Below are positions 6,853 through 30,166 of a stretch of DNA of 64,000 nt, one piece after another. Position numbers and translations under genes: made by a program. How positions within the stretch are numbered: position 1 is the stretch's first letter; each line of letters opens with the position of its first letter. Below the pieces are notes generated by a model. That model saw nothing but the letters and a program-made list of their open reading frames with translations. It was not told where the DNA came from and ran no database searches. Location: positions 1,389,501 to 1,453,500 of the forward strand of contig NZ_CP031395.1 in NCBI RefSeq assembly GCF_004328645.1, given 5' to 3'. This DNA comes from Hylemonella gracilis (GTDB lineage Bacteria > Pseudomonadota > Gammaproteobacteria > Burkholderiales > Burkholderiaceae_C).

Positions 6853-9177
6853 TTAGTGGAATTGTGGGAGAGCCGCCAGCGCCGGTCGGAACTCGTTGGC
6901 TAGCATATCCTTGGCCCAGTTGCCAATTCCTTCGAGCTTAGAGAGGTGACTGAGGGCTTGGCCCAAGCGATTCACGAGCGCAGGCGATCCGCTCGCGGCG
7001 GCCTCTCTGACCCAAGCATCTCGATCAACGCCAGGTATGTCTTTCGACAGTAGTTCGGCGATCGACCAGGTAATTGGTTCGGCAATCCCATTCTGGAGGC
7101 AGGATATGGAGCCACCTTCGATCTCGTGAGTATGAAACCCTTCAAGATCTGAACCAGGACGTCTGAGAACCTCTGTGCAACCACCCAGTTCCAGCAGAAG
7201 GGGGGCAGCGAGATTGAACAAACTGCCGTCCTCTTCTTGGAAGGCTACGCGATATTCGCGAAGCTGAGACAGTATTAGCCAGCCATCCATATTGGCTACT
7301 GTCGTGAGGTCGTCATCTTCAATGGGAACGGTCAGAGTTTGCGCTGCGCTTCCTCGGGTACTCAGTGTCAGCATACCGTCTCGTCCGATATTCACATCGA
7401 CCAAGCCCACGCTGGGCAGGAGAGTCACCATCCGCGAACCGGCGGGCAATTTCTCTCGGCGTGGCGGCAGGCGCAGCAACGAGTTGATGAGTTCGATGTA
7501 CAGCCTGCCTCCCAAATCGGGAATGGCTCTTGAAATTGCATGGGCGCAGATAGCATCGCCAAAAAAAATCTTGGAGCCGATGGCTATCAACCACTTGGCA
7601 GCCTCTTGCGAGTCCTTGCCTACCTTTTTCGGAAGAAGACTTGCTATCCGCGTCGCAATCTGTTGGCCGAATAGCTCCGGAACTCGGAAGACCCACGTCG
7701 CTTCGTCAGAGAATGACGCGCCGCGACGCAAGATCCCTGATTGAACTAGATCCTGAACCGCCTGGCGGTCAAGGTGCTGCCGAACGACTTTCTGACGAAT
7801 CGAGAATAGCTGAAGCGAGCTAAGAACGTCTCCATGGTGGCGTTTCGTATTCAGATCGTTCAGGTACGCCACAGTCAGGCGCTTGAGATCGTCGCGCAAC
7901 TCGCCGAGATCTGAGAACCTGTCGTCCGCGACGTCAAACATCTGGACCCCGAGAAGCGGAGCGAGGACCGCTCGACGCTCTGGGGAAGCTTCAACCATTT
8001 GGTCTGCAACTGCTGCGCGAAGAACCCAAGGGGCGCGCAGCTCGATAGCGTACTGTGCACCGTAGACGAGTCCACCTCCAAGGTCTGCCAGTACCCGCAC
8101 TGCCGCCTTGAACTCATCGTCGTCGTAGTTCCCTATCTTGATCGTTGAACTGATCCGACCGATCCGTGTCTTCTCACGCCGATTGGGCTTGAGCACCAGC
8201 GAGTCGAGATCGTTTTCGTCCAAGGAGACTACGACTCGCAATCCGTCTCCAAAGCTCCACAGCAGTTCATCCAGTTCGCCAAGGAGGACCGCGCTAGCAA
8301 GTGGGAGTGTGTCGATGCAAATCACCAGCAACCGGTCGCCTCTGTTCGTCAACTGGCGGACCCACACCCGCGCGTCGTCCGTACTGGCTGGCCAACTGAA
8401 CTGAGCCGCCAGCACGTTCGCAAGGCGGCGGAACAGACCTTCCCCGCAGGAGGAGCCCTCGACGTAAAGCACGTCCCATTCATCCTGGTCGCTCGTGAGC
8501 GCGAGTTCGCGCAAGACCGAGCTCTTACCGGAGAGGGGAGGTCCAGCCAACACTGCTACCTTACGTCCGGAACGCAGTGCCACCCGCACCTCCCGCGTAG
8601 CGCGTCTAGGCACGATGAAGCCCTCTACAAAGCGCTCGCCGCCTTCCCAGCCCGAAGTGAGCTCAGCAAGTTCATTCGAGGTCAGGGCTTTCACCGCGGA
8701 CGTTGCCAGATCCGTTCCGAGCAGCTTGCTGATGGCGGTCGATACCCCCGTCCGCGCTGCTGTGGCAGCCGTCTTAACTCTTTGCGCGAGTTCGACTGCT
8801 TCGAGAGTCGTGCCTTCGAGACGCGCCATGTCATGCGTCTGGAAGATTCGCGTGTCCGTTCCGTTCGTGATGACCACAAGGGGCGCCTGAGCCAAAAGTG
8901 CGTAGGAACGCCCCTGCTCTTCATCGGCTGGCGTAATTGCAAGTCCTTCCCGCTTCAGCTCCAGGACCGCAAGCGGGGTCTCCTTCTGGTAAACGAGGAT
9001 GTCTGCGCGACCCTCCACATAGTCCGCGGTTCCTGCATCAAACACCGTGTGCCCCAACTGCACTTTGAATCGCAGCTGGTGGCGCAGGTCCATGGTTCCA
9101 ATGAAGACGCGGCTGAGTGTCGCGTTGATACGCGACTCGAGTTGAGCCTCTGTCGGTGTGGTTGTCGTTATCGGCAC
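6853..9177 (-). CDS. Stand-alone nuclease-NTPase (HsdR-N-like domain plus P-loop), putative defence protein
   Basis: A 774-residue protein. The N-terminus resembles the type I restriction HsdR N-domain, a PD-(D/E)XK nuclease: D59 in RADILVY, then E73-L-K75 in LAVLELKRE, then a Q...Y motif. A P-loop GPPLSGKS follows at 212-219 and a Walker-B-like LLVICIDTL near 283-291. The remaining 480 residues are helical and look like a STAND-type regulatory/sensor region, although I cannot name the domain. No methylase or specificity subunit is adjacent, so it is not a classical restriction enzyme; an effector-plus-switch ATPase for phage defence is the best inference. It is monocistronic and opposite in direction to the flanking cassettes. 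Confidence 0.7.
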   Translation of the reverse strand: MPITTTTPTEAQLESRINATLSRVFIGTMDLRHQLRFKVQLGHTVFDAGTADYVEGRADILVYQKETPLAVLELKREGLAITPADEEQGRSYALLAQAPLVVITNGTDTRIFQTHDMARLEGTTLEAVELAQRVKTAATAARTGVSTAISKLLGTDLATSAVKALTSNELAELTSGWEGGERFVEGFIVPRRATREVRVALRSGRKVAVLAGPPLSGKSSVLRELALTSDQDEWDVLYVEGSSCGEGLFRRLANVLAAQFSWPASTDDARVWVRQLTNRGDRLLVICIDTLPLASAVLLGELDELLWSFGDGLRVVVSLDENDLDSLVLKPNRREKTRIGRISSTIKIGNYDDDEFKAAVRVLADLGGGLVYGAQYAIELRAPWVLRAAVADQMVEASPERRAVLAPLLGVQMFDVADDRFSDLGELRDDLKRLTVAYLNDLNTKRHHGDVLSSLQLFSIRQKVVRQHLDRQAVQDLVQSGILRRGASFSDEATWVFRVPELFGQQIATRIASLLPKKVGKDSQEAAKWLIAIGSKIFFGDAICAHAISRAIPDLGGRLYIELINSLLRLPPRREKLPAGSRMVTLLPSVGLVDVNIGRDGMLTLSTRGSAAQTLTVPIEDDDLTTVANMDGWLILSQLREYRVAFQEEDGSLFNLAAPLLLELGGCTEVLRRPGSDLEGFHTHEIEGGSISCLQNGIAEPITWSIAELLSKDIPGVDRDAWVREAAASGSPALVNRLGQALSHLSKLEGIGNWAKDMLANEFRPALAALPQFH

Positions 9178-9967: not shown

Positions 9968-10306
9968 ATCGGTCCTGGTAGCTTTTGTACAGACAATAAA
10001 AAAATCGAGTAGATGAGTCGTGAACGCCATCACAGCATTTGATATCTGGCCGTTTCTTACCAGAATCATCTTTTAACAGAGATGCGGTTGAACGCCTAGA
10101 AGAGGCTGACTCCGGTCACTTGGTCTCGATTCCCTAGTGACTATTGGTATCGGAACCAGTCATTGATCATTCTGCAGGCTTGCTGGCTGCTTCGAGTCGA
10201 AAAGTGGATTCACTAGTCACTTTCCTTCCTCGGCCTGTTCTTGCAGCGATTGGGTTTATCAAGGTATAAAGAGTGCAGGCTAATAAAAATGCCTCTGGAG
10301 GGAGCA

Positions 10307-12481
10307 ATGCAACAAGAAGATATTTTCTACGAAGACCGGTTCCTTGAAAGTTGGGCTGGCCCCATCGTTACAAATCCCAGTACGGCAATTGTTGAGCTTG
10401 TCGCAAATTGCTGGGACGCCTATGCCACCGAAGTCAACATAAGCTGGCCTAATTCGAAGAACCACAAGCAATTCTCCATCTCGGACAACGGCAAGGGCAT
10501 GACGAAGGCTGAGTTCGATTACATCTGGCGTGCCATGTCCTATGACCGCATCGCCAAGGGCGGTGTCACAACAACACCGCCACTAGGTTTAGAAGGTCTT
10601 CCTCGCTTTGTCTTCGGCAAAAATGGCAAGGGTCGGTTCGCCAGCTTTTGCCTCACCACGAACTACCAGATCAATTCGATTAAAGACGGTCAGAAGTTCA
10701 TCTACAAGGTCAGCAGGACACCCAACAAGCCACTGATCACAGAACTCGTGGAGTTCATTGAAAAGGACGTAGAGGGACATGGTACGACTATCACCGGGGA
10801 AGGAGAAATCCCTCAAATCAATCTTTCGGTGGAACAGGCAAGAGAATTACTTGGTGGGCGGTTCCTTGCTAATCCGTCCTTCAAGGTCATCCTGAATGGA
10901 TCACCGATTTCGTTTGCCGACATAAGCAAGTCATCTCTATCTATCGTAGAAGTTGAAGTGCAAAACTACGGAACGGTCAAGATCTATCACATTGATACCC
11001 GCAAGGCAGACAAGACGACGAAGCAGCATGGCATAGCGTGGTGGGTGATGAACCGTGCTGTGGGTGAGTGCCGTTGGCGTGGTACTGACGTTGAACGCAT
11101 TCTTGATGGTAGAACAGAGAAGGCCAAACGCTTTACCTTTATCGTTCAAGCAGACTTCCTTAATAAGGAAAACGCCGTAAAGGAAGATTGGTCGGGCTTC
11201 GTTGAAATGAACCCGGCATGGGAAGCGACCAGGCCAATCGTCCAAGACAAGATTCGGGAAATCATTGACAACACCAATGCGGCCGAACGCGAAGAGAAAC
11301 GTAGTGCTGTCCTTGAGCAAGTAGGGCAGTCGGTCAACGCCCTTCCTCTTCTGAGCAAGGATCGTGTGACCACGTTCGTCAATGAGGTTGTGGATACCTG
11401 CCCGAACTTCGGTGAGCAAGAGATCGTGCAACTGACAGGTATTCTGGCGAAACTGGAGAAGAGTAAGTCTCAGTATGGTTTGCTAGAAATCCTGCACAAA
11501 CAAGACCCGCATGACCTCGACGCTCTTCACGAAGTACTGAGCCAGTGGACCATTGGCATGGCGAAGGTCGTTCTTGACGAAATTCAGGGCCGCCTGAAGG
11601 TCATTAACGAACTTCGGATCAAGATTCAGGTAGCAGGTATCGATGAAGTCAAAGAACTTCAACCGCTATTTTCCAAGGGCCTGTGGATGTTCGGGGACAA
11701 GTTTGAATCTATTCACTTCACATCAAACAAGGGCATGACAACGGTCATCCGCGAGTTGTTTGACGGTAAGGCTGACAAGGCTTCATTGAATCGGCCAGAC
11801 TTTGTGATACGCGGCGATGGAAGCACAGGTTTTTACTCGCTTCCATCCTACAACGAGGATCACCAAGAGGTAGGCGTTGGTCACCTAGTCATCGTAGATC
11901 TGAAGACCACCAAGCTTTCACTCGGGTCCAAGGAAAAAGAGCAAATTTGGAAGTATGTGAAGGAGTTGAGGAAGAAGGGTTATATCCAAGCGGAGACGAG
12001 GATAGATGGTTTTGTTCTTGGAGATCAGATTGAGAGTGGTGAAGGCGGCACCCGCACGGAAGACAACGACAAGGTGAAGATTCAACCCTTGCTGTACAGC
12101 GTTATCTTGAACCGGGCTGAACAACGCCTTCTGAAGCTCTATGAAAAGGTAAAGGAAGCTCCGTTCCTTGTGGCACAGCAGGAAGAGTTGAACAAGTTCA
12201 TTGAGCCCATCGCCGTACAGCAGCCTGCCTTTCTGGGGCGGAACCAGTGGCGGCAAAATGACTTCTTCCTTGAACTAGATTGCTGCCTACAACAACTTCT
12301 TTGCGGCGTTGAACAGCAAGAACAAGGCGTTTTACGTCAGCAGTGCCACGTTCGGCCGCATGGTTCAACAGGTCAACCCTGGATCACCCAGCTACCAGCA
12401 GCTCACGCCATTGAGGCAAAGTCAAGGCAAGTCCAGCTCGCGTTTTTTTCGTTACCTTTCCATTCATGGCATAGAAACTAG
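10307..12481 (+). CDS. GHKL ATPase fused to PD-(D/E)XK nuclease, putative defence protein
   Basis: A 724-residue protein. The GHKL (Hsp90/MutL/MORC-like) ATPase comes first: N-box E30-LVA-N34, DNGKGM at 60-65, and the glycine-rich lid FGKNGKGRFASF at about 103-114. A C-terminal nuclease shows D498 in RPDFVIRG and D531-L-K533 in IVDLKTT, the PD-(D/E)XK pattern. GHKL ATPases with attached nucleases occur in defence islands, where ATP-driven clamping is thought to gate cleavage. The ATG at 10307 has a strong GGAGG site; an earlier TTG in frame was rejected. From about residue 645 the translation becomes low-complexity and unlike the rest, which suggests a disrupted C-terminus (see the fragment at 12279-12485). 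Confidence 0.7.
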   Translation: MQQEDIFYEDRFLESWAGPIVTNPSTAIVELVANCWDAYATEVNISWPNSKNHKQFSISDNGKGMTKAEFDYIWRAMSYDRIAKGGVTTTPPLGLEGLPRFVFGKNGKGRFASFCLTTNYQINSIKDGQKFIYKVSRTPNKPLITELVEFIEKDVEGHGTTITGEGEIPQINLSVEQARELLGGRFLANPSFKVILNGSPISFADISKSSLSIVEVEVQNYGTVKIYHIDTRKADKTTKQHGIAWWVMNRAVGECRWRGTDVERILDGRTEKAKRFTFIVQADFLNKENAVKEDWSGFVEMNPAWEATRPIVQDKIREIIDNTNAAEREEKRSAVLEQVGQSVNALPLLSKDRVTTFVNEVVDTCPNFGEQEIVQLTGILAKLEKSKSQYGLLEILHKQDPHDLDALHEVLSQWTIGMAKVVLDEIQGRLKVINELRIKIQVAGIDEVKELQPLFSKGLWMFGDKFESIHFTSNKGMTTVIRELFDGKADKASLNRPDFVIRGDGSTGFYSLPSYNEDHQEVGVGHLVIVDLKTTKLSLGSKEKEQIWKYVKELRKKGYIQAETRIDGFVLGDQIESGEGGTRTEDNDKVKIQPLLYSVILNRAEQRLLKLYEKVKEAPFLVAQQEELNKFIEPIAVQQPAFLGRNQWRQNDFFLELDCCLQQLLCGVEQQEQGVLRQQCHVRPHGSTGQPWITQLPAAHAIEAKSRQVQLAFFSLPFHSWHRN

Positions 12482-12485
12482 GTAG
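12279..12485 (+). other. Out-of-frame protein-like fragment overlapping the GHKL gene end
   Basis: In the frame offset from the GHKL gene, 12279-12485 encodes 68 residues with natural-looking composition (AYNNFFAALNSKNKAFY and SSATFGRMVQQVNPGSPSYQ), while the GHKL frame here reads Cys/Gln-rich. The fragment has no start codon and is preceded by an in-frame stop. It is either the displaced true C-terminus of the GHKL protein after an indel or a remnant of another gene. No family was recognised. Confidence 0.35.
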
Positions 12486-12493
12486 GGAGAGAC

Positions 12494-13198
12494 ATGACAG
12501 ATATTGACGACGAAGACCCTAAAGTTCGCCGCAATTTGGTGGCTTTCAGTTCGGCCATCCTGCTTTTCGCGTGGCTGGAGTTGCCAATGAAGGCGGTTAC
12601 GGAAAAATTCGTATCAACGAGTTGGTCCGCCGAGCCATTGCGAGTGTGGCTGGCGATCGCCGGGGTACTGATCTACCTTGCAATGCGCTTTCACTTCATA
12701 GGCGGAGGCAAAGAAGCATTCAGTACGTTAGGGGATGGGTTCCTGACTGACCTACATTGGCAAGTCGGTGCTTACATGAAACGCATTGAAGATGCACCTG
12801 CTAGTCGAAAGCAAATGCGTCACCCACTCGCCGACGCAGTGGACTTTGGTATACGCACCTTTGCTGTGTCAGGCAAGGCAACACCTGACGCTTTACACCA
12901 CGTCCACGTAAAGCCGCAGGGGTACGACAGTGGTAAGACTTGGCGTTTCTCGGGTGTCGCGGAGATCAACTTGGAATTTTTCAGCAAGGCCGATCGTGTA
13001 GAGCCCGTGCTTGATAGCAAAGAATTCGAAGTGAGCTACTCGCTTCCTTTCTGGCTGCGAGCATGGTACCTGCTGAAAGCCGCTTGGACGTCCTTCATTT
13101 TTTCAGAGCGGGCAATTACTGGGATGGCCCCAGTGTGGCTAGCGACTACAGCTAGTTTCGTGACAGGGCTGCGGCTTGGGACACTTTGGTCTGCCTAG
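12494..13198 (+). CDS. Membrane protein of unknown function, paired with the GHKL nuclease
   Basis: A 234-residue protein with an ATG at 12494 and GGGAGA a few bases before it. Two hydrophobic helices (about residues 16-34 and 50-66) lie near the N-terminus, and a possible membrane-associated stretch near 190-230 ends it; a soluble middle domain faces one side. I do not recognise the family. It lies 12 bases after the GHKL-nuclease gene on the same strand, so co-transcription is likely, and a membrane partner for a defence ATPase is a reasonable but untested idea. Confidence 0.6.
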   Translation: MTDIDDEDPKVRRNLVAFSSAILLFAWLELPMKAVTEKFVSTSWSAEPLRVWLAIAGVLIYLAMRFHFIGGGKEAFSTLGDGFLTDLHWQVGAYMKRIEDAPASRKQMRHPLADAVDFGIRTFAVSGKATPDALHHVHVKPQGYDSGKTWRFSGVAEINLEFFSKADRVEPVLDSKEFEVSYSLPFWLRAWYLLKAAWTSFIFSERAITGMAPVWLATTASFVTGLRLGTLWSA

Positions 13199-13291
13199 CT
13201 GATGTGTGTAACACCAGAAAAAATCATGAATGGTCTCTGTGAAATTCGATCCGAATCAGTCGGACCGTTTTCCACCTACCCTTTCCGTCAA

Positions 13292-13324
13292 GGGGCAAAG
13301 TGTCGCAAGACGCACTTTGCTCCC
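13292..13324. terminator. Hairpin between convergent genes
   Basis: GGGGCAAAGTG pairs with CACTTTGC-T-CCC around a 10-base loop, with one bulge. It sits between the ends of the membrane-protein gene (plus) and the STAND gene (minus), the expected place for a shared terminator. There is no good T-run, so this is tentative. Confidence 0.35.
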
Positions 13325-13402
13325 GACATCCCTCCGGTTTCAGTAGCACTTGTCTTTGAAATCTGTTCGTTTTCGCTATAGTCCCGTCCCTCACGGAGAT
13401 GA

Positions 13403-16400
13403 TTAATGCCGAGCGACCCCGTCCTCGTTTATCAGGCGCTCGCCCCTTGCTGCCTCTACCAAACGGACAAACCAAAACCAGCAATCTTCGCGGAAGTGGA
13501 TTGATGAATCGATAATATGCAATACCTCCTCCCGTGAGTATGCGCGTAGCATATCTGCAACGTAACGCAGATTGTTCAGTTGAAGAGGCGCATCCAGGAC
13601 GCGCGTCATGAGCTCCTCATGCACGGCGCGGTGCATAGGGTTGGCCGTAGCGGCCAGCCGATACAACAAGCTATCTTGGTCAATTTCGCTCGATGCAATA
13701 CAGCATTGGAGTGCCTCAACAGGAAACAGATCGAAGCCATCGGCGAACACTTGTGGAATGAGCGCAGCGAGGGAAGGCACCGCAAGCATGCGATCCAGCA
13801 GTCGAGCGCTGTAAGTAGCAGTTCCATTCAACGCCATCAATACCGCAGCCGCGCGCTTGTCGTCGAGATGGTGCACGACACAGTCAATGGCTAAGTCTGG
13901 AGAAAGAGCCAAAAATTGTGGAGTGAAGTGATCCTCCCATCGGTTCATCACACTATGAAGTGCGATCCAATAGGGAAAAGGATGTTCGATACCATCGCGT
14001 GTCTTTATGCGAAGCACGAGACCAGATCTCTTCTGCCAATCCTCGTAGAGTAAAAGCGCTTGTCGGATGTGGTATGTCGGCAGAGCATTCGGCTGCTTCG
14101 CGATGAACATTACAAGGTGGGGAATGCCCTTTGGGTAGACTCGCGCAGTAGCGTTAAGCACATCCTGCATAGCCTTGGGCCGCATCGGACTACCTAGCCG
14201 CCGCCAGATCTCATCGATTAGTGTGTCAGGCGCAGTCGAAAGCCAGCGCATGTGGGCAAGCGCGGGGATGTGGTGGATGCCCGCGAAGGACTGGGGCAGT
14301 TGTTCAATCAGTTCCGGTAGCAGGGCCTCGCCATGACGTGCAATTAATACCCGCCAACCAGCCTCGTCATGACCTGCGGCGATCCAGGCCCGCGCTGTTT
14401 CGTCATCAATCTCAAACGAGAGCACCTCAGCAAGTTTGTGATGATGAGCAGCACCAGTTGCTAAAGCTACACGCTGATAGCGGGCTACCCATGGTGAGCC
14501 ACATTCCACAATAGCAAAACCGAGCAGTTCTTGTGCACGTGGCCCCATAGAAGGGAAACGAGAGAGTAGTAACCCTAATATATCGTCATCACCGCAGCCG
14601 ACGAGCACTCTGTTGAGTTCGATCCATCCACTGGAATTTAGTGCTACAACAGATTCGACCAAGCGTTCGTATTCGATAGCGATGAATCGAGCCAGGCTTC
14701 TGTTGCTGCGTCTTGTTGCTGCGGCCCGAAGTAGCCAGGGGTGTGAAGCAATGACAGTGTCAAGATGCGGATGAACCCATTGCGGCACATCGCCGCAGCA
14801 GCCAAGCGCGGTTGCTGCCGCCTCTGCCCAACTTATTCGACCTGTTGCTGCAACTTGCTCAAGCCAAGGGCTCCACTCTGGCCCTCCCCTTTCGGCGATT
14901 GCATTGAGGACAAGGTCGCTATTCGGTGACCCTAGCCAGTCGGCAAGCGTAGCCCGCTGCGCATATAAGGCGTTTGGGCGGAGCGCCTGTTTCCACTCAG
15001 GGAGATACAGTTTGGATCGGCCAAGTTCAGCGAGCACCTCCAGAGCGGGGCGAAAAAAATCCGGGCGCGAGCCTTCCAGCGCAGCCATGGCGGCGCGATT
15101 GCGCACGGCTAGCCGAGGATCTGCAAAAGCGCGAGAGAACGATTCTGTTAGGAGCGAGAGAGGTCGTTCAACACTGCGACTTGTTTCGAGAACGGCTGCC
15201 AGGACAATATCTTCCTCAACTATTGCATTGACGTCGCTCTCTGCAGCACGTCCACCTGCTTGGATGGCCAGAGCATAGCTCTCGCGCGTCCGGAGCGGGC
15301 TTATCGCACGCTTGGCGACGGCGTCTTCCAGCAAGCCGCGTCCTGCAAGCCAGCTCCAGTAAAGGTCGTGGACAGGAACTGCCTGACCGCTACGTTCCAG
15401 AATAGTACCGAGGCTTCTCAGTAGACTAACCGGGTCTGTAATGCCCGCCTTCACTGATCGAATTTGGAGCTCATTCACGAGGCGCCCAAAAGATCGTGTT
15501 CCTGCTAGAGATAAGTCGGCTACGGCTCCAGCGAGCACCTGTGTAAAGCTCTCGGGTAACCCGTGCATAAGGTGCTCGTGGAATTGACGCAAGAGGTCGC
15601 CGGTCGTCGCAGAGCGTATACCTGAAAGAATTTGAATGGACAGAAGGAGAGGCAGTCGCAGAAGGTCGATCACCGAACTAGGTGGAAGCGGTTCACTTGG
15701 CGCTGCAGCAGCGAATACACGCGCCACTTGGTCAGGTGAAAGCAGATCGAGAGACCATTGCTTAAAAGCGCCGTCGTCGATGTCTACGAATTTGGCCGTC
15801 ACAACCAAACGTGAGCTTCGTAGAGCACGCAGCGCGCGTCGTTTCTCACCTGCTTGTGCAGTTCCTGAAAACTCGGACCAGCTATCAATGAAAACGCAAA
15901 TTCGAGGATCTTGGAATAGGGCAGATAGTTCGATCCCTGGTGCCGCCTCTGTGATCATTACCTCTAGGTCGCGCCAGCCTGTCACTTGCCCCGCAGGAAG
16001 ATACAGCGGAACGGTCGTACCGGCTTTGAGTAATTTATTTGCTGCATGCCAGAGAGCATGTGTCTTGCCAGAGCCTGGCTGTCCGATGATGACGTGTTTT
16101 TTCTCCGAAAGACCAATTAGCCCCACTAGCGACACACTCGATGGATCCCCGTTAGGCTTTATTTCAATGAGACGTGGCTCGATTGAGAATGCTTCCATAA
16201 GAGCATCTCGAGCCGAGGCCTCGGCTGCGGGGTAAAGCAGGTCTATCGATAGCGGGGCGCCAATCTCAATCAACGACTGTGCTAAGCCACGTAACTCTTC
16301 AACGGACAGAATGGTAATTGGTCGTGCGACGCGCTCACCCAGCAGATTTACGGCGACGCTTGACGGAACAGCGATTGCCGTCGCACTCTCAAGGCAAGCC

Positions 16401-17155
16401 TGAAGTTGTGCTCTATTTAAGCGACGCAGAGCCTTCCCAAGTGCGCACGCAACGATATCGCGGAAAACAGCATCGTAGGCGCGACGGGCCATGTCTGCAG
16501 TCGCCTGGAACTCACCTCGGCGCGCGACTAACGTTCGCCGGTTGGCCTCCTCGAGAGCGTGCCAATCCGGAGCACCGCATGCAAACGTCACTGGGCCGAG
16601 AAGTTCGGCCTTGAGCTGATCGGGAGGGCTATTCGCGACAAAATACCGAAGCTCCTCAGACAGGGGACGCTTAAGAAGAGCCACGCGGAGCTCTTCAACT
16701 TCGTCTTCGGAGGTGGCAACTTCCCAAGCGATCAGGCCAGCCACTCCGGAAGGCAAAGCATCCTTTTGCTCCTGTCCGATGCCCGATGTTGTCAGAAACA
16801 CGAGCCTTACTTCCCGCCCAGGGTTGCTGGCACGAAGTCTATACAGTGCCTCAATGGCGGCCAGAACATCTGGCGAGTTCAGCGTTATCGATCTGGACTC
16901 GCGCGTGTCTTTTACCTGCGTGGCTCTAAGCACTTCATCGACCCTGCCCGGTTCGCGTAGAAGTTCGGTGTAGTCCTCGGCAACTTCTAGGTAGAGTTCA
17001 TCGTGCGCTCCTAACGCCAACCATGCTGCGGCCGAGGCGTGGAGCTGGTAGACATAGCCCCTAAGCGACGCAGTAGCTTGTCTGCCCAATTCTTCGGGCG
17101 GAACACTCCATATCTGAGACGCATCTCCTAAGTAAGAAACGGGCGTGGTCGGCAT
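13403..17155 (-). CDS. STAND NTPase with N-terminal DUF4297-like nuclease (Avs-like)
   Basis: A 1250-residue protein. Residues 1-200 resemble the DUF4297/Cap4-type nuclease domain: a GYVYQLHA motif at 33-40, E57xxED61 and Q80-V-K82, the usual E...QVK catalytic pattern. A P-loop GQPGSGKT is at 358-365 and a Walker B ICVFIDSW at 419-426, as in STAND NTPases. From about residue 600 to the end the protein is made of helical, HEAT-like repeats that would act as sensor. This effector-NTPase-repeat order is that of Avs antiphage proteins, which detect phage proteins and then cut DNA. It is the last gene of a probable operon with a protease and a CoiA-like nuclease (gap of 109 bases). Confidence 0.75.
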   Translation of the reverse strand: MPTTPVSYLGDASQIWSVPPEELGRQATASLRGYVYQLHASAAAWLALGAHDELYLEVAEDYTELLREPGRVDEVLRATQVKDTRESRSITLNSPDVLAAIEALYRLRASNPGREVRLVFLTTSGIGQEQKDALPSGVAGLIAWEVATSEDEVEELRVALLKRPLSEELRYFVANSPPDQLKAELLGPVTFACGAPDWHALEEANRRTLVARRGEFQATADMARRAYDAVFRDIVACALGKALRRLNRAQLQACLESATAIAVPSSVAVNLLGERVARPITILSVEELRGLAQSLIEIGAPLSIDLLYPAAEASARDALMEAFSIEPRLIEIKPNGDPSSVSLVGLIGLSEKKHVIIGQPGSGKTHALWHAANKLLKAGTTVPLYLPAGQVTGWRDLEVMITEAAPGIELSALFQDPRICVFIDSWSEFSGTAQAGEKRRALRALRSSRLVVTAKFVDIDDGAFKQWSLDLLSPDQVARVFAAAAPSEPLPPSSVIDLLRLPLLLSIQILSGIRSATTGDLLRQFHEHLMHGLPESFTQVLAGAVADLSLAGTRSFGRLVNELQIRSVKAGITDPVSLLRSLGTILERSGQAVPVHDLYWSWLAGRGLLEDAVAKRAISPLRTRESYALAIQAGGRAAESDVNAIVEEDIVLAAVLETSRSVERPLSLLTESFSRAFADPRLAVRNRAAMAALEGSRPDFFRPALEVLAELGRSKLYLPEWKQALRPNALYAQRATLADWLGSPNSDLVLNAIAERGGPEWSPWLEQVAATGRISWAEAAATALGCCGDVPQWVHPHLDTVIASHPWLLRAAATRRSNRSLARFIAIEYERLVESVVALNSSGWIELNRVLVGCGDDDILGLLLSRFPSMGPRAQELLGFAIVECGSPWVARYQRVALATGAAHHHKLAEVLSFEIDDETARAWIAAGHDEAGWRVLIARHGEALLPELIEQLPQSFAGIHHIPALAHMRWLSTAPDTLIDEIWRRLGSPMRPKAMQDVLNATARVYPKGIPHLVMFIAKQPNALPTYHIRQALLLYEDWQKRSGLVLRIKTRDGIEHPFPYWIALHSVMNRWEDHFTPQFLALSPDLAIDCVVHHLDDKRAAAVLMALNGTATYSARLLDRMLAVPSLAALIPQVFADGFDLFPVEALQCCIASSEIDQDSLLYRLAATANPMHRAVHEELMTRVLDAPLQLNNLRYVADMLRAYSREEVLHIIDSSIHFREDCWFWFVRLVEAARGERLINEDGVARH

Positions 17156-17264
17156 GGGGTTGGCTCATTAGAAAAAGAGTGGCATAGCCAGACATGAATT
17201 TTTTGGTTCAATTCACCGCAGGAAGTGTATTTTCCCCACAGGTATGCCAGCTAATCTAGGTCGA

Positions 17265-18062
17265 CTAACCAGAATCCTTGATTGATCCATCCGGATTGAT
17301 CAGCCCTGCTGGACGCAGGAACAAAATGTCGAATGATTCCGCATGTTGATAGATGATCCCTGCGAACTCAAATTGAAGACCACGATCCACAAACGCAGGC
17401 CCTCCGCTAAGCCCACCTAGTTCTTTGAGGGTAATGGCCTTATCGCTGTCTCCACGGGCCACTGATGAAATCCAGTAGTCACGCTCCAATTGGCAGGACA
17501 AGCGATCTGAATGGGAGGTTGTCACCTTAATTCCAGCCGTACTGAATGAGCCGAAAACAAGTTCGTCGTGGGCTACCCATTCTCGCCAAGCACCCGGGAA
17601 CCCACCAAACATAATTGGCTGCCCTACTTCCACTGGTTCCGGGGGCCATTTGGCAGGTCTGATAACGCGACTCCCGATCTCCCCCTCACGCTGAAGAGCA
17701 TCAAGTTGCGCTGTCGTGAGCCGGATCGTGACCAAGTCTGTTGTGTCGTTCTTGCAAACCAGTTGGTCCTCGACCGATATTTCAGTCATTCCGATTTGTA
17801 GCAGCGCATCACCCAACTCGTTGCGCACGTCGTAGTACGCGTCTATGACGTGGGCACAGGTGACAGCGTAGATACCGCTGGGTAGCTCTAAAAGCGTGGC
17901 AGTACCGTTAAAGACTTTGGTTGTACCGCTCTTTCGTGGTCTTCCTCCTAAAAATACAGCTTTGCAATACTGCAACGGGTACTTGACCATGATCTCACCG
18001 CCGGGACCAGTGGCGAAGCGTCGCCCTTGCTCTTCTGACATGAACTGCAACGGATATGTCAC
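17265..18062 (-). CDS. Trypsin-like serine protease in the STAND operon
   Basis: A 265-residue protein with a visible chymotrypsin-fold triad: H71 in AVTCAHVID, D109 in NDTTDLVTI and S219 in GGLSGGPAF. There is no signal peptide, so it is probably cytoplasmic. The GTG at 18062 is 16 bases after the upstream gene; an ATG at 18041 is an equally possible start, and neither has a clear ribosome site. In Avs1 systems a trypsin-like protease accompanies a STAND protein, so a similar role, being switched on by or acting on the neighbouring NTPase, is a reasonable inference. The target is unknown. Confidence 0.75.
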   Translation of the reverse strand: MTYPLQFMSEEQGRRFATGPGGEIMVKYPLQYCKAVFLGGRPRKSGTTKVFNGTATLLELPSGIYAVTCAHVIDAYYDVRNELGDALLQIGMTEISVEDQLVCKNDTTDLVTIRLTTAQLDALQREGEIGSRVIRPAKWPPEPVEVGQPIMFGGFPGAWREWVAHDELVFGSFSTAGIKVTTSHSDRLSCQLERDYWISSVARGDSDKAITLKELGGLSGGPAFVDRGLQFEFAGIIYQHAESFDILFLRPAGLINPDGSIKDSG

Positions 18063-18077
18063 GAGGTTGAAGACGAG

Positions 18078-19214
18078 TTAAAGATCTGGCGGAAAACCGG
18101 GTAACTTAGACGGATCGCTATCGTTGAAGGTTCCTTTCCGCAAATTTCCGATGAAATCGGTGACTGTTGTGACGTCTTTTGCGATCAATGACCTACGATT
18201 AGGCTCAAGTAAAGCAACAGAGGGTGGAAAAAATTCATCCCACCCGTCCCAGCGATTCGGCCAAGGCAGGACACGCACACTCCCCGCCTTCGTCTGGTAA
18301 ACCACCCAGGCTCCTCCATCCTTGAGTGGGAAGAGAAAAAACGAGGCATGAGGCTTTGCATCTGGCGCCCAACTCCAGCCCTGAACTGACTTCGGGGTTA
18401 CCAGAGGAGGACTCAACGCAAAGCGACGCAACTGCTCAAACGCGTCAGTATTGGAGGTCGAGTTGAGCATGCCTTGACGCTGCTGCTTCCGCATCGATTC
18501 CTCTGCCTCTAGCCTGCGATTGGCTTCATCTGCCAATGCATTTACCTCAGCTAGCGCGGCCGAGCGCTGTCCATCCTTATCGGGAAAGTAAATCCATATC
18601 CAGCGCAGCGCATGCTGCAGATATTCAGTCGCGATCTTGGTTGAGGTGACTTCGCCTGGCTTGGGTGCAGGGCACCAGCACAAAAGTTTGAAGGCGTTCG
18701 GGTTGCCGGCTGCCTCATCGCCCAGAGAGGTACCGAGGTTCTCAGCGCGCACGTCGACGAAGATTTCCAGTTGCGCGCCATTGGCAAGAGGAGCCGTCCC
18801 GATCGGATGGGTGCGAGGCGGAAGGGCTTTGGGACCAAAACTATCGGCCCAAGTGATTGCGGCACCTGAAGCCAGCATTAGCCGGGACTCGATCGCTTTG
18901 GAGATACTCCTGCGACCGTAGATATGTGGCCTAGTATCTGTGACATGCTCCAAATGGGCCGGAATCGGGAAGGGTGAGCTCGTGCTCAGAATCTGTAATG
19001 CCAAACGGCGAAGCAAATTGAGGGCACCGGCGAGACACTCTGGCCGCTCTTGGCCGGCAACGTGGGCGAAATGCCAGATGCGAACGGTGCCTTTTTTTGC
19101 TTCAAGACGGCTTGAGCAACTAAGGCAGAAGCACCCACAGGCAAGCCCGGAGGGAACGTCCCCGATGAAACGGGTTTCACCGGTTTCGCTGATTCCTGCA
19201 AAGAGGGTGCTCAT
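18078..19214 (-). CDS. CoiA-like nuclease-related protein, first gene of the STAND operon
   Basis: A 378-residue protein. The N-terminus carries CoiA-type features: a cysteine cluster C26-x-C28-x-C30-x2-C33 in ACGCFCLSC, then KKGTVRIWHFAH with H48 and H51, and a following Cys. CoiA-like proteins combine a Zn-binding module and a PD-(D/E)XK-like nuclease; the nuclease residues are not obvious here. The rest (coiled-coil near 220-255, then a folded C-terminus) is unrecognised. ATG 19214 was preferred to a GTG at 19256 because it gives the MSTLFAG beginning common in the family. It is followed by the protease (16 bases) and the STAND gene. Confidence 0.6.
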   Translation of the reverse strand: MSTLFAGISETGETRFIGDVPSGLACGCFCLSCSSRLEAKKGTVRIWHFAHVAGQERPECLAGALNLLRRLALQILSTSSPFPIPAHLEHVTDTRPHIYGRRSISKAIESRLMLASGAAITWADSFGPKALPPRTHPIGTAPLANGAQLEIFVDVRAENLGTSLGDEAAGNPNAFKLLCWCPAPKPGEVTSTKIATEYLQHALRWIWIYFPDKDGQRSAALAEVNALADEANRRLEAEESMRKQQRQGMLNSTSNTDAFEQLRRFALSPPLVTPKSVQGWSWAPDAKPHASFFLFPLKDGGAWVVYQTKAGSVRVLPWPNRWDGWDEFFPPSVALLEPNRRSLIAKDVTTVTDFIGNLRKGTFNDSDPSKLPGFPPDL

Positions 19215-19477
19215 GAAGGCTTCAGTTCTTTGAAGTGCCCAGAGAGATGGCGTCACAATATGATAAACCTCGGAATTCTGCGCGCATGCAGATAGCTTTC
19301 AAGAGTCAAGGTATCGAGTGACGGACAGTAGGACGTCGATGACCAAACTGTAGGGCTAAGAAGCGGAGTGAGATGCAATGTCCGTTTTGTAGAAGTTACC
19401 CAGGAATTTCATTTGCAAAGTGCCCGCTCGCATCGCGACCGAAAGGCCAAATGAGAGTGGGCATATGTGATGCGTTT

Positions 19478-20410
19478 TCAGGCGGCCTCAGAAGTGACCT
19501 TGATTGCCAGCTTCTGACTCAGGCCAGTTCGATGCTCGGGTTTGTGCTCTTGAGCATGAGGTAGTCGTTGTTCAGGGGAAGCGTTCTGCGCCTGCTCAGA
19601 GTTGTAGAACTCCTCCACGACGCTGGATGCCTCCTCAATCGACTCCTCGAATGCCCCGTTCGCAAAACCCATGCGTGCTGCGTTGTCCAGTCCCTGCTGA
19701 CTGAAACCAGCCTCCAGCCTGGCCTGTGCCAGAACCTTGGCCTGCTTGATGGCCTCTTCGAGTGCCAGCCCAGTTCGAACTGTCAGGTCGACGTAGTAGA
19801 TCGCCGACCGATGGCTCTGAGTGGTGGACTTGCCTCGAATCTTTAGTTCCAGCGGCATAGCTGCCAGCACATCGCCCGAAACGCCCTTGAAGTACTGCAG
19901 GCGTGCCGCCAGCGTGCGGATGGAGTTGAAAGACGTGGTGCGGAAGATGAATGAGCCCAGCTCATCAAGCGTCGCGTCGTCTCCCCCACCATCGATCACC
20001 ACGTTCAGGCGACCATAGGGCTTGCACTTGCCCCAGCCAAAGTCGCAGCCCTCAGGTGACGGACAAGCCATTTCCTTGACGCCATCCTCCGTGGCTCGAC
20101 GACAGGTTTCCCCGTTGCCCACACAGACGGGGCGCCCTGTCTCCTTGTCGAAAGCCGAGAACTCCGCCCGCAGATTCAAGTCCGGGTCATTGAAGAGCAC
20201 CCGTACTGGAATCGAGCGCAGCTTGGCGTTGGCCTCCTTGCGCAGCTTGCCGTCCATTGGATGCAGCATCCAGCCATCACGGTTCTGGACCTGGGTGGTG
20301 ATGGTGAACTGGTCATCCTTTTCCGGCAGACGCTTGCCATTCTTCTCCACCACGCGACCGATGGAGATGCGCCCGATGACGGGCGGGGTGATTGCAAGAC
20401 CTTTGAGCAT
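19478..20410 (-). CDS. Recombination-directionality-factor-like / hydrolase or metal-binding protein of mobile elements
   Basis: A 310-residue protein starting MLKGLAITPPVIGRISIGRV, which I recognise as the family often labelled hydrolase or metal-binding protein in ICEs and plasmids and as related to Gp3-like recombination directionality factors. A cysteine-rich segment (C-V-GNGETC, then CPSPEGC, then CKPYGR, about residues 95-135) may bind metal. AAAGGA lies eight bases before the ATG. It follows the YqaJ nuclease by 21 bases, on the same strand, within a module of mobile-element genes. A role in processing or excision of the element is inferred; direct activity is unknown. Confidence 0.65.
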   Translation of the reverse strand: MLKGLAITPPVIGRISIGRVVEKNGKRLPEKDDQFTITTQVQNRDGWMLHPMDGKLRKEANAKLRSIPVRVLFNDPDLNLRAEFSAFDKETGRPVCVGNGETCRRATEDGVKEMACPSPEGCDFGWGKCKPYGRLNVVIDGGGDDATLDELGSFIFRTTSFNSIRTLAARLQYFKGVSGDVLAAMPLELKIRGKSTTQSHRSAIYYVDLTVRTGLALEEAIKQAKVLAQARLEAGFSQQGLDNAARMGFANGAFEESIEEASSVVEEFYNSEQAQNASPEQRLPHAQEHKPEHRTGLSQKLAIKVTSEAA

Positions 20411-20431
20411 GGGTTGATTCCTTTCTGATGT

Positions 20432-21439
20432 TCAAGATGAAGCGGTGACGAGGAATCGCCGCGCTCCGGGTTTGGTAATGACGTAGCGCTCAGCCAAGTC
20501 AGGGTGATCGGCCAGGAGACGCTTGAGGTCTACGCCCTCGCTGTCCTTGCTGCGCTTCCAGGAGACCTCGCCGGACTCGAAGACGGCCCGACTGGCGTCG
20601 CCCATGGCTTGTTGGATGGATTGAGTGAGCTGGGCTTCTTCTTCCGTCAGTCCAGCGATGCGAGAGCGCAGGGTCAGGAGGTCTGCGAACGTGGTTGACA
20701 GGCTGCGCTCCGAGCTGAAGTCCACCGTCGTTCCCGCGTCACGGGGATAGAGGCACCGCAGAGCCTGGTCCGCCGATTCCGAGCCGTCTGCTGGCGGTGG
20801 GTTTTCGTCCTGCACGTACTTCCAGAAGCGGGCTTCCAGTTCGATGAGGTTGGCAATCAGCGCGTCGTCCCGCTTGATGCGGTGAACCTCCAGTCGCTGA
20901 CCGCAGAGCAGCACAGCCACGTCCGCAGCGCGCTTGCCTGTCACGGCCAGTTGGTGCTGTACCTGGATCTGGACGTACTCGGGCACTCCCTGTTTCCAGA
21001 GCCTGGCGCCGAACTCTCCCGCCGTCTTGCATTCCAGAATCTGGACTTCGGGCACGCTCACGACCTCACGGTCGAGGTTGGCCAGCATGAAGGCGTATCG
21101 GGGATGCTGCAGGATGGCGTTGACCTTGCGCACCTTGTTGCCCGTCTGCTGGGTATAGGCTGCGGCCACGATGGGCTCCAGCAGCGTTCCCCAATAGACG
21201 GGCTCCGTGGTGTCGGTCGGATCTGGCTTCTTGAGATCGATATCCCTGCCAGTCTTTTCCATCCAGAGTTCGAGCTGGCTCTTGTAGGGCGACAGGCCCA
21301 CGGCTGCGGCGGCATCTGAACCGCCGATGCCAGTGCGCCGGACCTCCAGCCAATCCTCCCGCTTGATGTGGCGGGTTTCGACCAGGCGCAAGGCTGGCCG
21401 GCGAGCGGTCCCCGCCGATACCTGCTTGAGATGAGACAT
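20432..21439 (-). CDS. YqaJ-family viral recombinase / exonuclease
   Basis: A 335-residue YqaJ-type (lambda-exonuclease fold) 5'-3' exonuclease. Seen in order: WLEVRRTGIGGSDAAAAVG (about residues 29-47), WGTLLEPIV with its Glu, ANLDREV with a catalytic Asp, and LECKTA, the E-x-K pair, then a QIQVQHQLAVTG motif. Such enzymes resect double-strand ends for single-strand annealing and are common in phages, ICEs and plasmids. GGGAG lies before the ATG. Its neighbours (DUF6878-like, DUF932, RDF-like) support a mobile-element recombination module. A dedicated annealing protein (RecT/Bet) was not recognised nearby. Confidence 0.85.
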   Translation of the reverse strand: MSHLKQVSAGTARRPALRLVETRHIKREDWLEVRRTGIGGSDAAAAVGLSPYKSQLELWMEKTGRDIDLKKPDPTDTTEPVYWGTLLEPIVAAAYTQQTGNKVRKVNAILQHPRYAFMLANLDREVVSVPEVQILECKTAGEFGARLWKQGVPEYVQIQVQHQLAVTGKRAADVAVLLCGQRLEVHRIKRDDALIANLIELEARFWKYVQDENPPPADGSESADQALRCLYPRDAGTTVDFSSERSLSTTFADLLTLRSRIAGLTEEEAQLTQSIQQAMGDASRAVFESGEVSWKRSKDSEGVDLKRLLADHPDLAERYVITKPGARRFLVTASS

Positions 21440-21457
21440 TGGAAACTCCCAATAAAA

Positions 21458-21486
21458 AAGCCCCGCCTGAATCTCAGGCGAGGCTT
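21458..21486 (-). terminator. Rho-independent terminator after the DUF6878-like gene
   Basis: A 13-bp stem (AAGCCTCGCCTGA with one mismatch) and a three-base loop, followed on the minus strand by a run of T. It separates the DUF6878-like gene from the YqaJ gene. Confidence 0.75.
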
Positions 21487-21514
21487 CGGGTTTGCGAAGG
21501 TGATTTCGTTGGGG

Positions 21515-21949
21515 TCAGAGCACGTAGTAGTGGTAGCTGCTCGTCGTGTGGAGCTGTTCGTACTCTAGTTCGAAGCGGTTGTCTTCGACGTGAATGGTCA
21601 CAGTTCCCTTGCCGCCGTCATTGCGCTCCCAGCCCGGGTGGTTCTGACCCACCCAAGCCAAGACGAAATCCTCCAAGGATTTGTGCAAGAGGCAGGCGCT
21701 CTCTTCGAGCTCAAAGCGAACGATGCTGTCCTGGATGCGCTTCAGGACACGGCACTGGATCACCTTCTCGGTTTTGAGCAATCGCGCCATCATCTCCGGC
21801 TCGATGGTTGGCTCTGATACCTTCCCGATTCCGCCACGCCCTTCGTAGTCAATGATGACCGTCCGCATGTCCAACTGATGCAGCCGGACCATCAAGGCTT
21901 CGCGGTTGAACTTCAGCGCTCGCTCGTGAACCTCACGATCTCCGTTCAT
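21515..21949 (-). CDS. Conserved mobile-element protein, DUF6878-like
   Basis: A 144-residue protein. The pattern near residues 90-125 (LEDFVLAWVGQNHPGWERNDGGKGTVTI) resembles the DUF6878 family, for which no function is known to me. It has a nearly ideal ribosome site (AAGGAGGT, five bases from the ATG) and is followed by its own terminator. Found between DUF932 and YqaJ genes, as in other integrative elements, it likely belongs to the element's recombination or anti-restriction set, but nothing in the sequence shows a reaction. Confidence 0.55.
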   Translation of the reverse strand: MNGDREVHERALKFNREALMVRLHQLDMRTVIIDYEGRGGIGKVSEPTIEPEMMARLLKTEKVIQCRVLKRIQDSIVRFELEESACLLHKSLEDFVLAWVGQNHPGWERNDGGKGTVTIHVEDNRFELEYEQLHTTSSYHYYVL

Positions 21950-21981
21950 GAGTACCTCCTTCTTGAAACAAAAAAAGCAAA

Positions 21982-22007
21982 AGCCCGGCAGCTTTCGCTG
22001 TCGGGCT
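21982..22007 (-). terminator. Rho-independent terminator after the DUF932 gene
   Basis: AGCCCGGCAGC/GCTGTCGGGCT stem around a TTTC loop (one G-T pair), followed on the minus strand by a T-rich run. It ends the DUF932 transcript before the next gene starts at 21949. Confidence 0.7.
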
Positions 22008-22030
22008 CTATGACGAGTTGAAAGATCTGC

Positions 22031-23017
22031 TCAGGCCACCAGCTTCAGGGCTTCTTCCCAGGCTTTCTGCTTGATGGCTGCCCCTTGGCCGAACCAGGCT
22101 GCGTCGCGGCGATGGTCATCACTGCGGGCACGGCGGTGATGGTCCACGTACTCGGTAATGCTGTTGAGCAGCCCCCAGGCCGTACCGGTTGCCGAGGCCA
22201 ACTCGGAGCCCTTGCCACGGCCCGCGTACAGCTCCTGAGCGGCCTTGAGGGCGCTGTCATTGACGGTGAGATTGACCCCTTCGTTGCTGTTAACCGGGTA
22301 GGTCAGCACACGACGCAGGAATCCCTCAACCGCTCCATCCTTGATCTTGCAATCGGCCAGAGCCTTCATACGAACCATGAAGCCATCCCAGGAAGAGATG
22401 GCAATGCCGAGCTGACGCTTGACGGCCTGGGCATCGAATTGGCTGCGGTGCATGACCTTGATTGCGCCTTCTCCTTCACGCAGGGCGATTTCCAGCGAGT
22501 TGCTGCACGTCACTCTAAGAGCGGTGAACTTCGCTGTAGTCGCCAGCGTGCCATCGCAAGCCGTTGCCAGCAGCAGATAGCCATTGACCTTGTCACGACC
22601 CTTTAGACAGGCACTTTGGCCGGTCTTGGCCAAGGCCCAGAGCTTGCGGCCTTCTTTGAGGACGCCAGCGGTTTCGAGCTCGAAGCCGCCTGCCTCGGTC
22701 AGGTCGCGGTAGAACTCCAGGATCTCCGAAGGCTGAACGACCTGGAAGCGGCTGGAGACGACCGATAGAGGCATCTTGGTGTCCGAGCGGTAGAGGACTC
22801 GCTGCTCGGGGAAGGCGCGGATCGAGCCTAGGCCACGGTTGCTGTCGTTGCCGTCCTTGCCCTCGTTGGCAATGAACCGGACATCGGCAGATTCGATGCG
22901 CCAGTCCATGCCGGCGCGCTCGGCCCAAACCTCGATGGGTTGCCCGGGCGAGAGTTGGTTGCCCAGGCCATGCCAGGGCGCTTCGTTGGCATAGGCCATC
23001 GTTTGTACGAGATGCAT
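22031..23017 (-). CDS. DUF932 phage/plasmid-like protein
   Basis: A 328-residue member of the DUF932 / phage-plasmid-like family (TIGR03299 type). Diagnostic stretches are MAYANEAPWHGLG (near residue 7), LYRSDTKMPLSVVSSRFQVVQP (about 74-95) and a DGTLATTAKFTALRVTCSNSLEIAL block (about 154-178). The family is frequent on plasmids, phages and ICEs and has been linked to recombination or anti-host functions without a proven reaction. GGAG precedes the ATG by about eight bases. Flanked on both sides by terminators, so it seems to be transcribed on its own. Confidence 0.8.
   Translation of the reverse strand: MHLVQTMAYANEAPWHGLGNQLSPGQPIEVWAERAGMDWRIESADVRFIANEGKDGNDSNRGLGSIRAFPEQRVLYRSDTKMPLSVVSSRFQVVQPSEILEFYRDLTEAGGFELETAGVLKEGRKLWALAKTGQSACLKGRDKVNGYLLLATACDGTLATTAKFTALRVTCSNSLEIALREGEGAIKVMHRSQFDAQAVKRQLGIAISSWDGFMVRMKALADCKIKDGAVEGFLRRVLTYPVNSNEGVNLTVNDSALKAAQELYAGRGKGSELASATGTAWGLLNSITEYVDHHRRARSDDHRRDAAWFGQGAAIKQKAWEEALKLVA

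Positions 23018-30089: not shown

Positions 30090-30166
<77 letters not shown>

What the first reader, a model, noticed from the sequence alone, without database searches (positions are those of the whole stretch)
13403..19214. Candidate new defence operon: CoiA-like protein, trypsin-like protease, DUF4297-like STAND NTPase
Three tightly spaced minus-strand genes combine a Zn/CoiA-like protein, a cytoplasmic serine protease with a complete triad (H71, D109, S219), and a nuclease-STAND-HEAT sensor of Avs type. Avs1 pairs a protease with a metallo-beta-lactamase and a STAND protein; here a CoiA-like protein takes the first place and the STAND protein has its own nuclease. This composition is not one I can name.
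Basis: partly seen in the sequence, partly recalled or inferred. Interest (0 to 1): 0.82.

Follow-up and report, generated by a model that had tools for sequence, protein, structure and literature searches.

The report
Nuclease-NTPase defence gene beside protease
A mobile genomic island in a bacterium carries a large sensor protein that probably kills phage-infected cells by cutting DNA, next to two small genes (a protease and an inactive-looking CoiA relative); the three genes are real, but the relatives found for each lack the other two, so they look more like neighbours than a proven new three-part immune system.

Summary
The three minus-strand genes are real: CoiA-like (start 19214 by comparison with relatives), protease (18062 or 18041), STAND-type protein (17155). 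The protease triad H71/D109/S219 is invariant in its five-member alignment. The large protein keeps an E57/D61/Q80-x-K82 nuclease signature and a P-loop (K364). Its DUF4297 assignment rests on relatives (PADLOC DUF4297 hit by 9 of 14 rows; PDB DUF4297 E=0.004), not on the window protein alone.

The 'new operon' reading was tested and not supported: none of 17 full-length CoiA-like relatives, 5 protease relatives (plus a fragment) or 13 opened nuclease-domain relatives carries either other gene. Over 100 aa or more no relative exceeds about 38% identity, so a rare lineage-specific system is not excluded. The CoiA-like protein keeps its zinc-type N-terminus; its central domain has weak PD-(D/E)XK-like fold matches and lacks the usual catalytic residues.

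The locus lies in a 36.3-kb tRNA-Pro island with an integrase, a MobA/MobL gene and a CBASS. Most likely: a solo Avs-like DNA-degrading sensor beside separately acquired cargo. A proteolytic relay like the nuclease-protease pairs of Avs1/Hachiman remains possible (about 0.2).

The parts
13403..17155 (-). STAND-type protein, 1250 aa: N-terminal DUF4297-like nuclease domain (about residues 20-265), P-loop NTPase (about 350-450, Walker A K364), unassigned C-terminal half
   Evidence: ORF; sub-cut-off nSTAND/AAA matches; conserved residues; DUF4297 match of relatives
16910..16987 (-). Nuclease signature E57...D61...Q80-V81-K82 of the STAND-type protein (coordinates computed from residue numbers)
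   Evidence: E57, D61, Q80, V81 invariant in A8; K82 is K or R in relatives
16064..16066 (-). Walker A lysine K364 (coordinates computed)
   Evidence: nearly invariant column in A4
17265..18062 (-). Trypsin-like serine protease, 265 aa (GTG 18062, or ATG at 18041, where the start of relative L014 aligns); triad H71, D109, S219
   Evidence: Trypsin_2 E=0.0022, under cut-off; PADLOC LmuA E=5.6e-8; triad invariant in A7
18078..19214 (-). CoiA-like protein, 378 aa from the ATG at 19214 (open frame from GTG 19256): CoiA_N zinc-type N-terminus (C26, C28, C30, C33, H48, H51, C60), central domain with weak PD-(D/E)XK-like fold matches and without the usual catalytic residues, C-terminal domain with a conserved GW
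   Evidence: CoiA_N E=1.2e-6, over cut-off
30090..30112 (-). Right end of the island: 23-bp 3' end of tRNA-Pro(CGG); the exact second copy lies at G000:C1:1383268-1383290, about 6.2 kb left of window base 1

Best explanation
The large gene (13403-17155) is a one-protein, Avs-like defence gene: a DUF4297/Cap4-type DNA-cutting domain held off by a STAND-type NTPase switch and released when the C-terminal half senses a phage product, so that the infected cell's DNA is degraded (abortive infection). The protease and the CoiA-like gene are separate cargo genes of the same mobile island that have come to lie, and may be transcribed, in front of it; the CoiA-like protein is probably a non-catalytic zinc/nuclease-fold DNA-binding relative of CoiA. 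Shown here: ORFs, motifs, island, separate occurrence of the relatives. Inferred: nuclease activity, phage sensing, cell death, the non-catalytic state of the CoiA-like protein, independence of the three genes.
For: Nuclease signature and P-loop conserved. Relatives of the N-terminal domain match DUF4297 (PADLOC 9 of 14 rows, best 3.4e-7; PDB DUF4297 8xav E=0.0041), a family reported as a dsDNA nuclease in an abortive defence system (PMC11291478, passages). In 13 opened relatives the gene stands without the protease and CoiA-like genes, with varied neighbours such as HEPN, DUF4145 or Gamma_PGA_hydro (scanned in one of three such loci). 17 of 17 full-length CoiA-like loci and 5 of 5 protease loci (plus one fragment) lack the other two genes. 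Defence-rich island: CBASS cyclase and phospholipase, second nuclease-NTPase candidate at 6853-9177, integrase and MobA/MobL.
Against: Gaps of 15 and 109 bp on one strand with no promoter-like match inside the run (a consensus scan that found fewer matches than its shuffles) fit one transcript and perhaps one system. No relative exceeds about 38% identity over 100 aa or more, so no close orthologue was available to test linkage, and some loci are cut by contig ends. A CoiA family gene lies directly behind two trypsin-like genes on one Cupriavidus plasmid (L011), though those proteases begin with signal-peptide-like sequence (by eye) and were matched neither by the window protease in tblastn nor by its five-member HMM. 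The window protein itself does not reach PADLOC DUF4297 at E<=0.01, and a profile comparison of its nuclease domain with one Cap4 found no match.
Confidence: 0.5

Rival explanations
1. One three-gene system with a proteolytic relay: the STAND protein senses infection and assembles, the protease becomes active, and it cuts the CoiA-like protein (releasing a DNA-binding or nuclease-fold effector) or the STAND protein itself. This would be a new, non-MBL version of the nuclease-protease pairs of Avs1 and Hachiman.
For: Gene order (nuclease-fold gene, protease, STAND) and 15/109-bp gaps; the protease resembles a PADLOC LmuA model (E=5.6e-8); the CoiA-like model gives weak PD-(D/E)XK-like fold matches; [quoted passage not shown]
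Against: 0 of 17 CoiA-like, 0 of 5 protease (plus one fragment) and 0 of 13 STAND-domain relatives show the pairing. In the known systems the protease is fused to the defence enzyme and the nuclease is MBL-type (PMC12799240, section 3 part 1); here it is not fused and Pfam shows no MBL domain. The window CoiA-like protein lacks the acidic residues that most of its family has at two positions, and no conserved lysine stands in the core.
Confidence: 0.2
2. The CoiA-like gene and the protease form a two-gene unit of their own (mobile-element maintenance, DNA processing or a separate defence), with the STAND gene an independent neighbour.
For: 15-bp gap against 109 bp to the STAND gene; CoiA-like relatives sit on plasmids and next to recombination or defence genes (DnaB on L009, DNA methyltransferase on L008, DUF932 on L021, TIR on L029); one CoiA-trypsin neighbourhood exists on L011; here the gene lies downstream of the Gp3-like/YqaJ/DUF932 genes on the same strand.
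Against: No other CoiA-like locus has a relative of this protease.
Confidence: 0.2
3. The protease is itself an independently spread small defence gene (cassette-like), brought beside the STAND gene by chance.
For: Relatives lie in unrelated contexts: what looks like an integron cassette array (L045, judged by eye from many same-strand short ORFs with a shared MSNVR start), behind an HTH gene (L047), near a Cap4-SAVED CBASS-like cluster (L044), beside housekeeping-like genes (L115, by eye).
Against: The tight gap to the CoiA-like gene.
Confidence: 0.1

Closest known systems
Avs (AVAST) STAND sensors with a nuclease effector, in particular Avs3 with its Cap4-type domain
   Same: N-terminal DUF4297/Cap4-like nuclease, P-loop NTPase, long C-terminal half, single large gene in a defence island; the Avs3 'cap4 domain' and DUF4297 are superposed in PMC11291478 (figure-legend passage); nuclease effectors of Avs1-Avs4 are said to cause altruistic cell death (PMC12931631, passage)
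   Different: No Avs model hit in PADLOC; the PDB sequence search at E<=1 gave only one chance-level match (E=0.98); the C-terminal half has no relative in any fetched locus
Avs1 / HamMAB / protease-type LmuA nuclease-protease pairs (PMC12799240)
   Same: A gene with nuclease-fold features upstream of a trypsin-like protease next to a STAND gene; the protease matches a PADLOC LmuA model
   Different: Protease not fused to the defence enzyme; upstream gene is CoiA-like, not MBL; no co-conservation found
DUF4297-HerA
   Same: The nuclease family (PDB 8xav matched by profile A8, E=0.0041; PADLOC DUF4297 matched by 9 of 14 rows)
   Different: The ATPase is in the same protein and STAND-like; no HerA family among the Pfam matches of the neighbouring genes that were scanned
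CoiA competence protein family
   Same: CoiA_N domain over cut-off; zinc-type Cys/His pattern
   Different: Lacks the RPD...E core that some other CoiA_N proteins keep (motif found by regular expression in L011, L079, L085 and, varied, L089); extra C-terminal domain

Membership tests
Avs (AVAST) | matches a curated Avs model | tested here: not met
   PADLOC at E<=1: only a Cas5d match that looks spurious. That the library holds AVAST models is recalled, not checked.
Avs (AVAST) | effector - STAND NTPase - C-terminal sensor in one protein | tested here: inconclusive
   Effector and P-loop supported; all STAND matches below curated cut-offs; C-terminal half unassigned; structure model of residues 1-480 unusable
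Avs1-type nuclease-protease pair | MBL-fold nuclease gene upstream | tested here: not met
   Upstream gene hits CoiA_N only
[quoted passage not shown]
   Separate ORFs 17265-18062 and 13403-17155; definition from PMC12799240 section 3 part 1
Avs1-type nuclease-protease pair | nuclease and protease co-inherited | tested here: not met
   0 loci outside the own genome with two of the three genes; limited to distant relatives
Avs1-type nuclease-protease pair | protease cleaves and activates its partner | not testable with these tools
   needs biochemistry
DUF4297/Cap4 nuclease | E...D...QxK active-site pattern | tested here: met
   E57, D61, Q80, V81 invariant in 7 rows; K82 present in the window, K or R in relatives. 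The pattern as family signature is recalled.
DUF4297/Cap4 nuclease | match to the family model | tested here: inconclusive
   9 of 14 rows match PADLOC DUF4297 but the window row does not at E<=0.01; NCBIfam E=0.19; profile A8 to PDB DUF4297 E=0.0041; no match to one Cap4
Trypsin-like serine protease | His-Asp-Ser triad with GxSGGP | tested here: met
   Invariant H71, D109, S219-G-G-P in 5 of 5 rows
Trypsin-like serine protease | Trypsin_2 gathering score | tested here: not met
   19.2 bits against 27.6
CoiA | CoiA_N domain over cut-off | tested here: met
   28.3 against 26.3 bits; 31.8 bits
CoiA | nuclease catalytic core | tested here: not met
   In residues 61-215 of 14 full-length rows no lysine column and no RPD...E core is conserved; E at 74 (11 of 14), E at 102 (10 of 14) and D at 144 (9 of 14) are Q, R and A in the window; D212 is acidic in 14 of 14
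PD-(D/E)XK fold (CoiA-like central domain) | fold match | tested here: inconclusive

The most novel reading that the evidence does not exclude
A lineage-specific three-part immune relay in which a STAND/DUF4297 sensor controls a stand-alone trypsin-like protease that cuts a CoiA-type nuclease-fold protein: a proteolytic cascade built on a non-MBL, DNA-uptake-related partner, extending the nuclease-protease principle of Avs1/Hachiman to a new protein class.
Probability: 0.15. Interest if true: 0.75.

Novelty: new member of a known kind. Interest (0 to 1): 0.36.

Why it matters
If the simple reading holds, this adds a nuclease-type STAND defence protein that the PADLOC search does not recognise, with a C-terminal sensing half that has no relative in any locus fetched here, so its phage trigger may be new. 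If the relay reading holds, it would show that bacterial immune proteolysis recruits nuclease folds other than MBL and uses free proteases. The family of CoiA-like proteins without the usual core (17 distinct loci here) is not described in the listings I saw (of which 120 and 121 show 8 of 54 and 8 of 363 papers).

Tried and rejected
Co-conserved operon: rejected at the available distances. A regular expression for trypsins near CoiA genes missed the known trypsins of L011 and was replaced by HMMs. The wider trypsin HMM (whose training set includes the L011 proteases, so their recovery is by construction) also found weak matches in L027, L028 and L030, more than 4.8 kb from the CoiA gene, not counted as neighbours.

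STAND structure: the alignment could not be used for prediction, no permitted relatives were found, and the single-sequence model of residues 1-480 has pLDDT 37 and was not searched. Profile comparison with one Cap4 nuclease gave nothing. Viral contigs: nothing for the protease or STAND gene, one CoiA-like locus. Phage records: no match for any of the three. Genome samples, own genome included: STAND in 1 of 398 (phylum) and 6 of 399 (family; three others match the nuclease domain, two only the P-loop); CoiA-like in 3 of 100 relatives (the other two by partial matches); CoiA_N in 18 of 349 (order); protease in 5 of 399 and 2 of 293.

Literature listings: searches (coia + anti-phage + protease + defense, 3 papers; coia + nuclease + immune + ntpase, 2 papers; serine protease + stand + coia, 8 of 54 listed) show no paper on a CoiA-protease-STAND system; open-licence PMC papers only. 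One search (avs3 + cap4 + stand + terminase) found none.

What the counts leave out. Three of 13 plasmid STAND hits were not opened (H13, H16, H19), nor H5, a copy of H4. L042/L043 match only the P-loop. L003-L005, L010, L011, L032, L033 and most CoiA_N loci match only part of the CoiA-like protein and are not among the 17; they too lack the other two genes, many of them on short stretches. On the downstream side, where the protease lies in the window, L019 has 0.2 kb, L056 2.4 kb, the other 15 at least 5.9 kb. Protease loci L047, L115 and the fragment L046 lie about 1 kb or less from a contig end on one side; L047 is a weak relative (24% in A7). Opened STAND relatives: L012, L013, L015-L017, L051-L055, L048-L050; they carry about 5-6 kb or more upstream of the gene except L048 (1.8 kb).
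Full report
What is there. One search confirms three minus-strand ORFs: CoiA-like 18078-19256 (GTG; relatives favour the ATG at 19214), protease 17265-18062, and a 1250-aa protein 13403-17155. Gaps are 15 and 109 bp. The consensus scan found one promoter-like site in 12900-20000, ahead of the CoiA-like gene, fewer than in shuffles (1 against a mean of 3.8), and no terminator-like site in the two gaps. One transcript is possible but not shown.

The large protein. Pfam matches are all P-loop/STAND models under their cut-offs (best E 0.036). Aligned with 13 relatives, G363 and K364 are nearly invariant, and G33, Y36, Q37, W45, E57 and D61 invariant. In the closer set of seven E57, D61, Q80 and V81 are invariant. 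Nine of 14 rows match PADLOC DUF4297 (best 3.4e-7) and nine match an LmuA model (best 1.1e-12); the window row is not among them at E<=0.01. The seven-row profile matches the PDB DUF4297 chain 8xav at E=0.0041; a comparison with one Cap4 protein found nothing. DUF4297-HerA is reported as a dsDNA nuclease with abortive defence, and its domain is superposed on the Avs3 cap4 domain (PMC11291478, passages).

The protease. Trypsin_2 is below cut-off, but triad and GxSGGP are invariant in five proteins, and a PADLOC LmuA model matches at 5.6e-8. Relatives: one plasmid, four genomes besides the own among 399 of the family, one of them a fragment, and one besides the own among 293 of the class. They sit in unrelated places: beside an AlbA_2 gene (L014), near a Cap4-SAVED gene in what looks like a CBASS cluster (L044), in an array that looks like integron cassettes (L045, by eye), behind an HTH gene (L047) and beside housekeeping-like genes (L115, by eye).

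Co-conservation. tblastn of the three proteins against every locus fetched found no locus, outside the window's own genome, with two of the three. That covers 17 distinct full-length CoiA-like loci, 5 protease relatives and 13 opened STAND-domain relatives; a sixth protease locus is a fragment found by search and HMM. The protease HMM agrees. Only one locus opened joins any CoiA family gene to trypsin-like genes directly, the Cupriavidus plasmid L011, with a different CoiA protein and proteases that begin with a signal-like sequence. Limits: nothing above about 38% identity over 100 aa or more was found, a few loci are cut by contig ends (see Tried and rejected), and the large protein database was not available.

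Setting. GC is mostly 0.49-0.60 between 2 and 30 kb of the window and mostly 0.60-0.70 beyond. An exact 23-bp copy of the tRNA-Pro 3' end lies at G000:C1:1383268 and again at window 30090, enclosing 36.3 kb. Two of 25 genus mates were opened at this site: in G403 the two flanks are contiguous at an intact tRNA-Pro; in G404 a different stretch of about 3.9 kb lies there. An integrase and a MobA/MobL gene lie at the left end, a patatin-cyclase CBASS at 2802-5203.

Mechanism. By analogy with Avs and DUF4297 systems, I infer that the large protein senses a phage product, assembles through its NTPase and degrades DNA. In PMC12799240 (abstract, section 3 part 1, sections 7 and 9 read) an MBL pro-nuclease is activated by a trypsin-like domain fused to a defence enzyme (HamA, Avs1a or LmuA, as printed there). 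The present locus resembles this in gene order but has neither defining element, so I file it as Avs-like in working, not as an Avs1 member. The relay remains the most novel reading not excluded.

Noticed in passing
2802-5203: CBASS core: patatin-like phospholipase effector (PADLOC E=2.8e-114) and DncV-like oligonucleotide cyclase (PADLOC E=1.8e-189).
   Followed up: partly
6853-9177: 774-aa minus-strand protein with a type I restriction HSDR_N-type nuclease domain followed by a weak STAND/AAA P-loop match under cut-off: a second nuclease-NTPase candidate in the same island.
   Followed up: no
10241-13198: GHKL-ATPase protein (HATPase_c_3; NCBIfam BbrUII-type restriction enzyme E=1.6e-21, under cut-off) followed by a 234-aa protein without Pfam or PADLOC hits.
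   Followed up: no
25643-27513: A Schlafen group 3 helicase domain (E=8.6e-75, profile 74-354) starts in a second, overlapping frame after a 370-aa ORF without Pfam hits; possibly one gene in two frames. Described only.
   Followed up: no
19478-23017: Gp3-like, YqaJ/RecE-like exonuclease, DUF6878 and DUF932 genes on the same strand just upstream of the CoiA-like gene: recombination-type mobile element genes.
   Followed up: partly
L048, L049, L050: DUF4297-like STAND relatives sit directly behind a gene that looks like a poly-gamma-glutamate hydrolase (Gamma_PGA_hydro E=8.5e-28 in L050; the other two judged by eye): a recurring two-gene arrangement.
   Followed up: partly
L044:2926-8987: Cap4-SAVED gene with a trypsin-like gene of another type beside it (by eye) and, about 3 kb further on the other strand, a relative of the window protease.
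   Followed up: no
L055:4956-8995: On a Rhizobium plasmid the STAND relative is annotated as two adjacent genes near a GTPase-associated-system gene.
   Followed up: no
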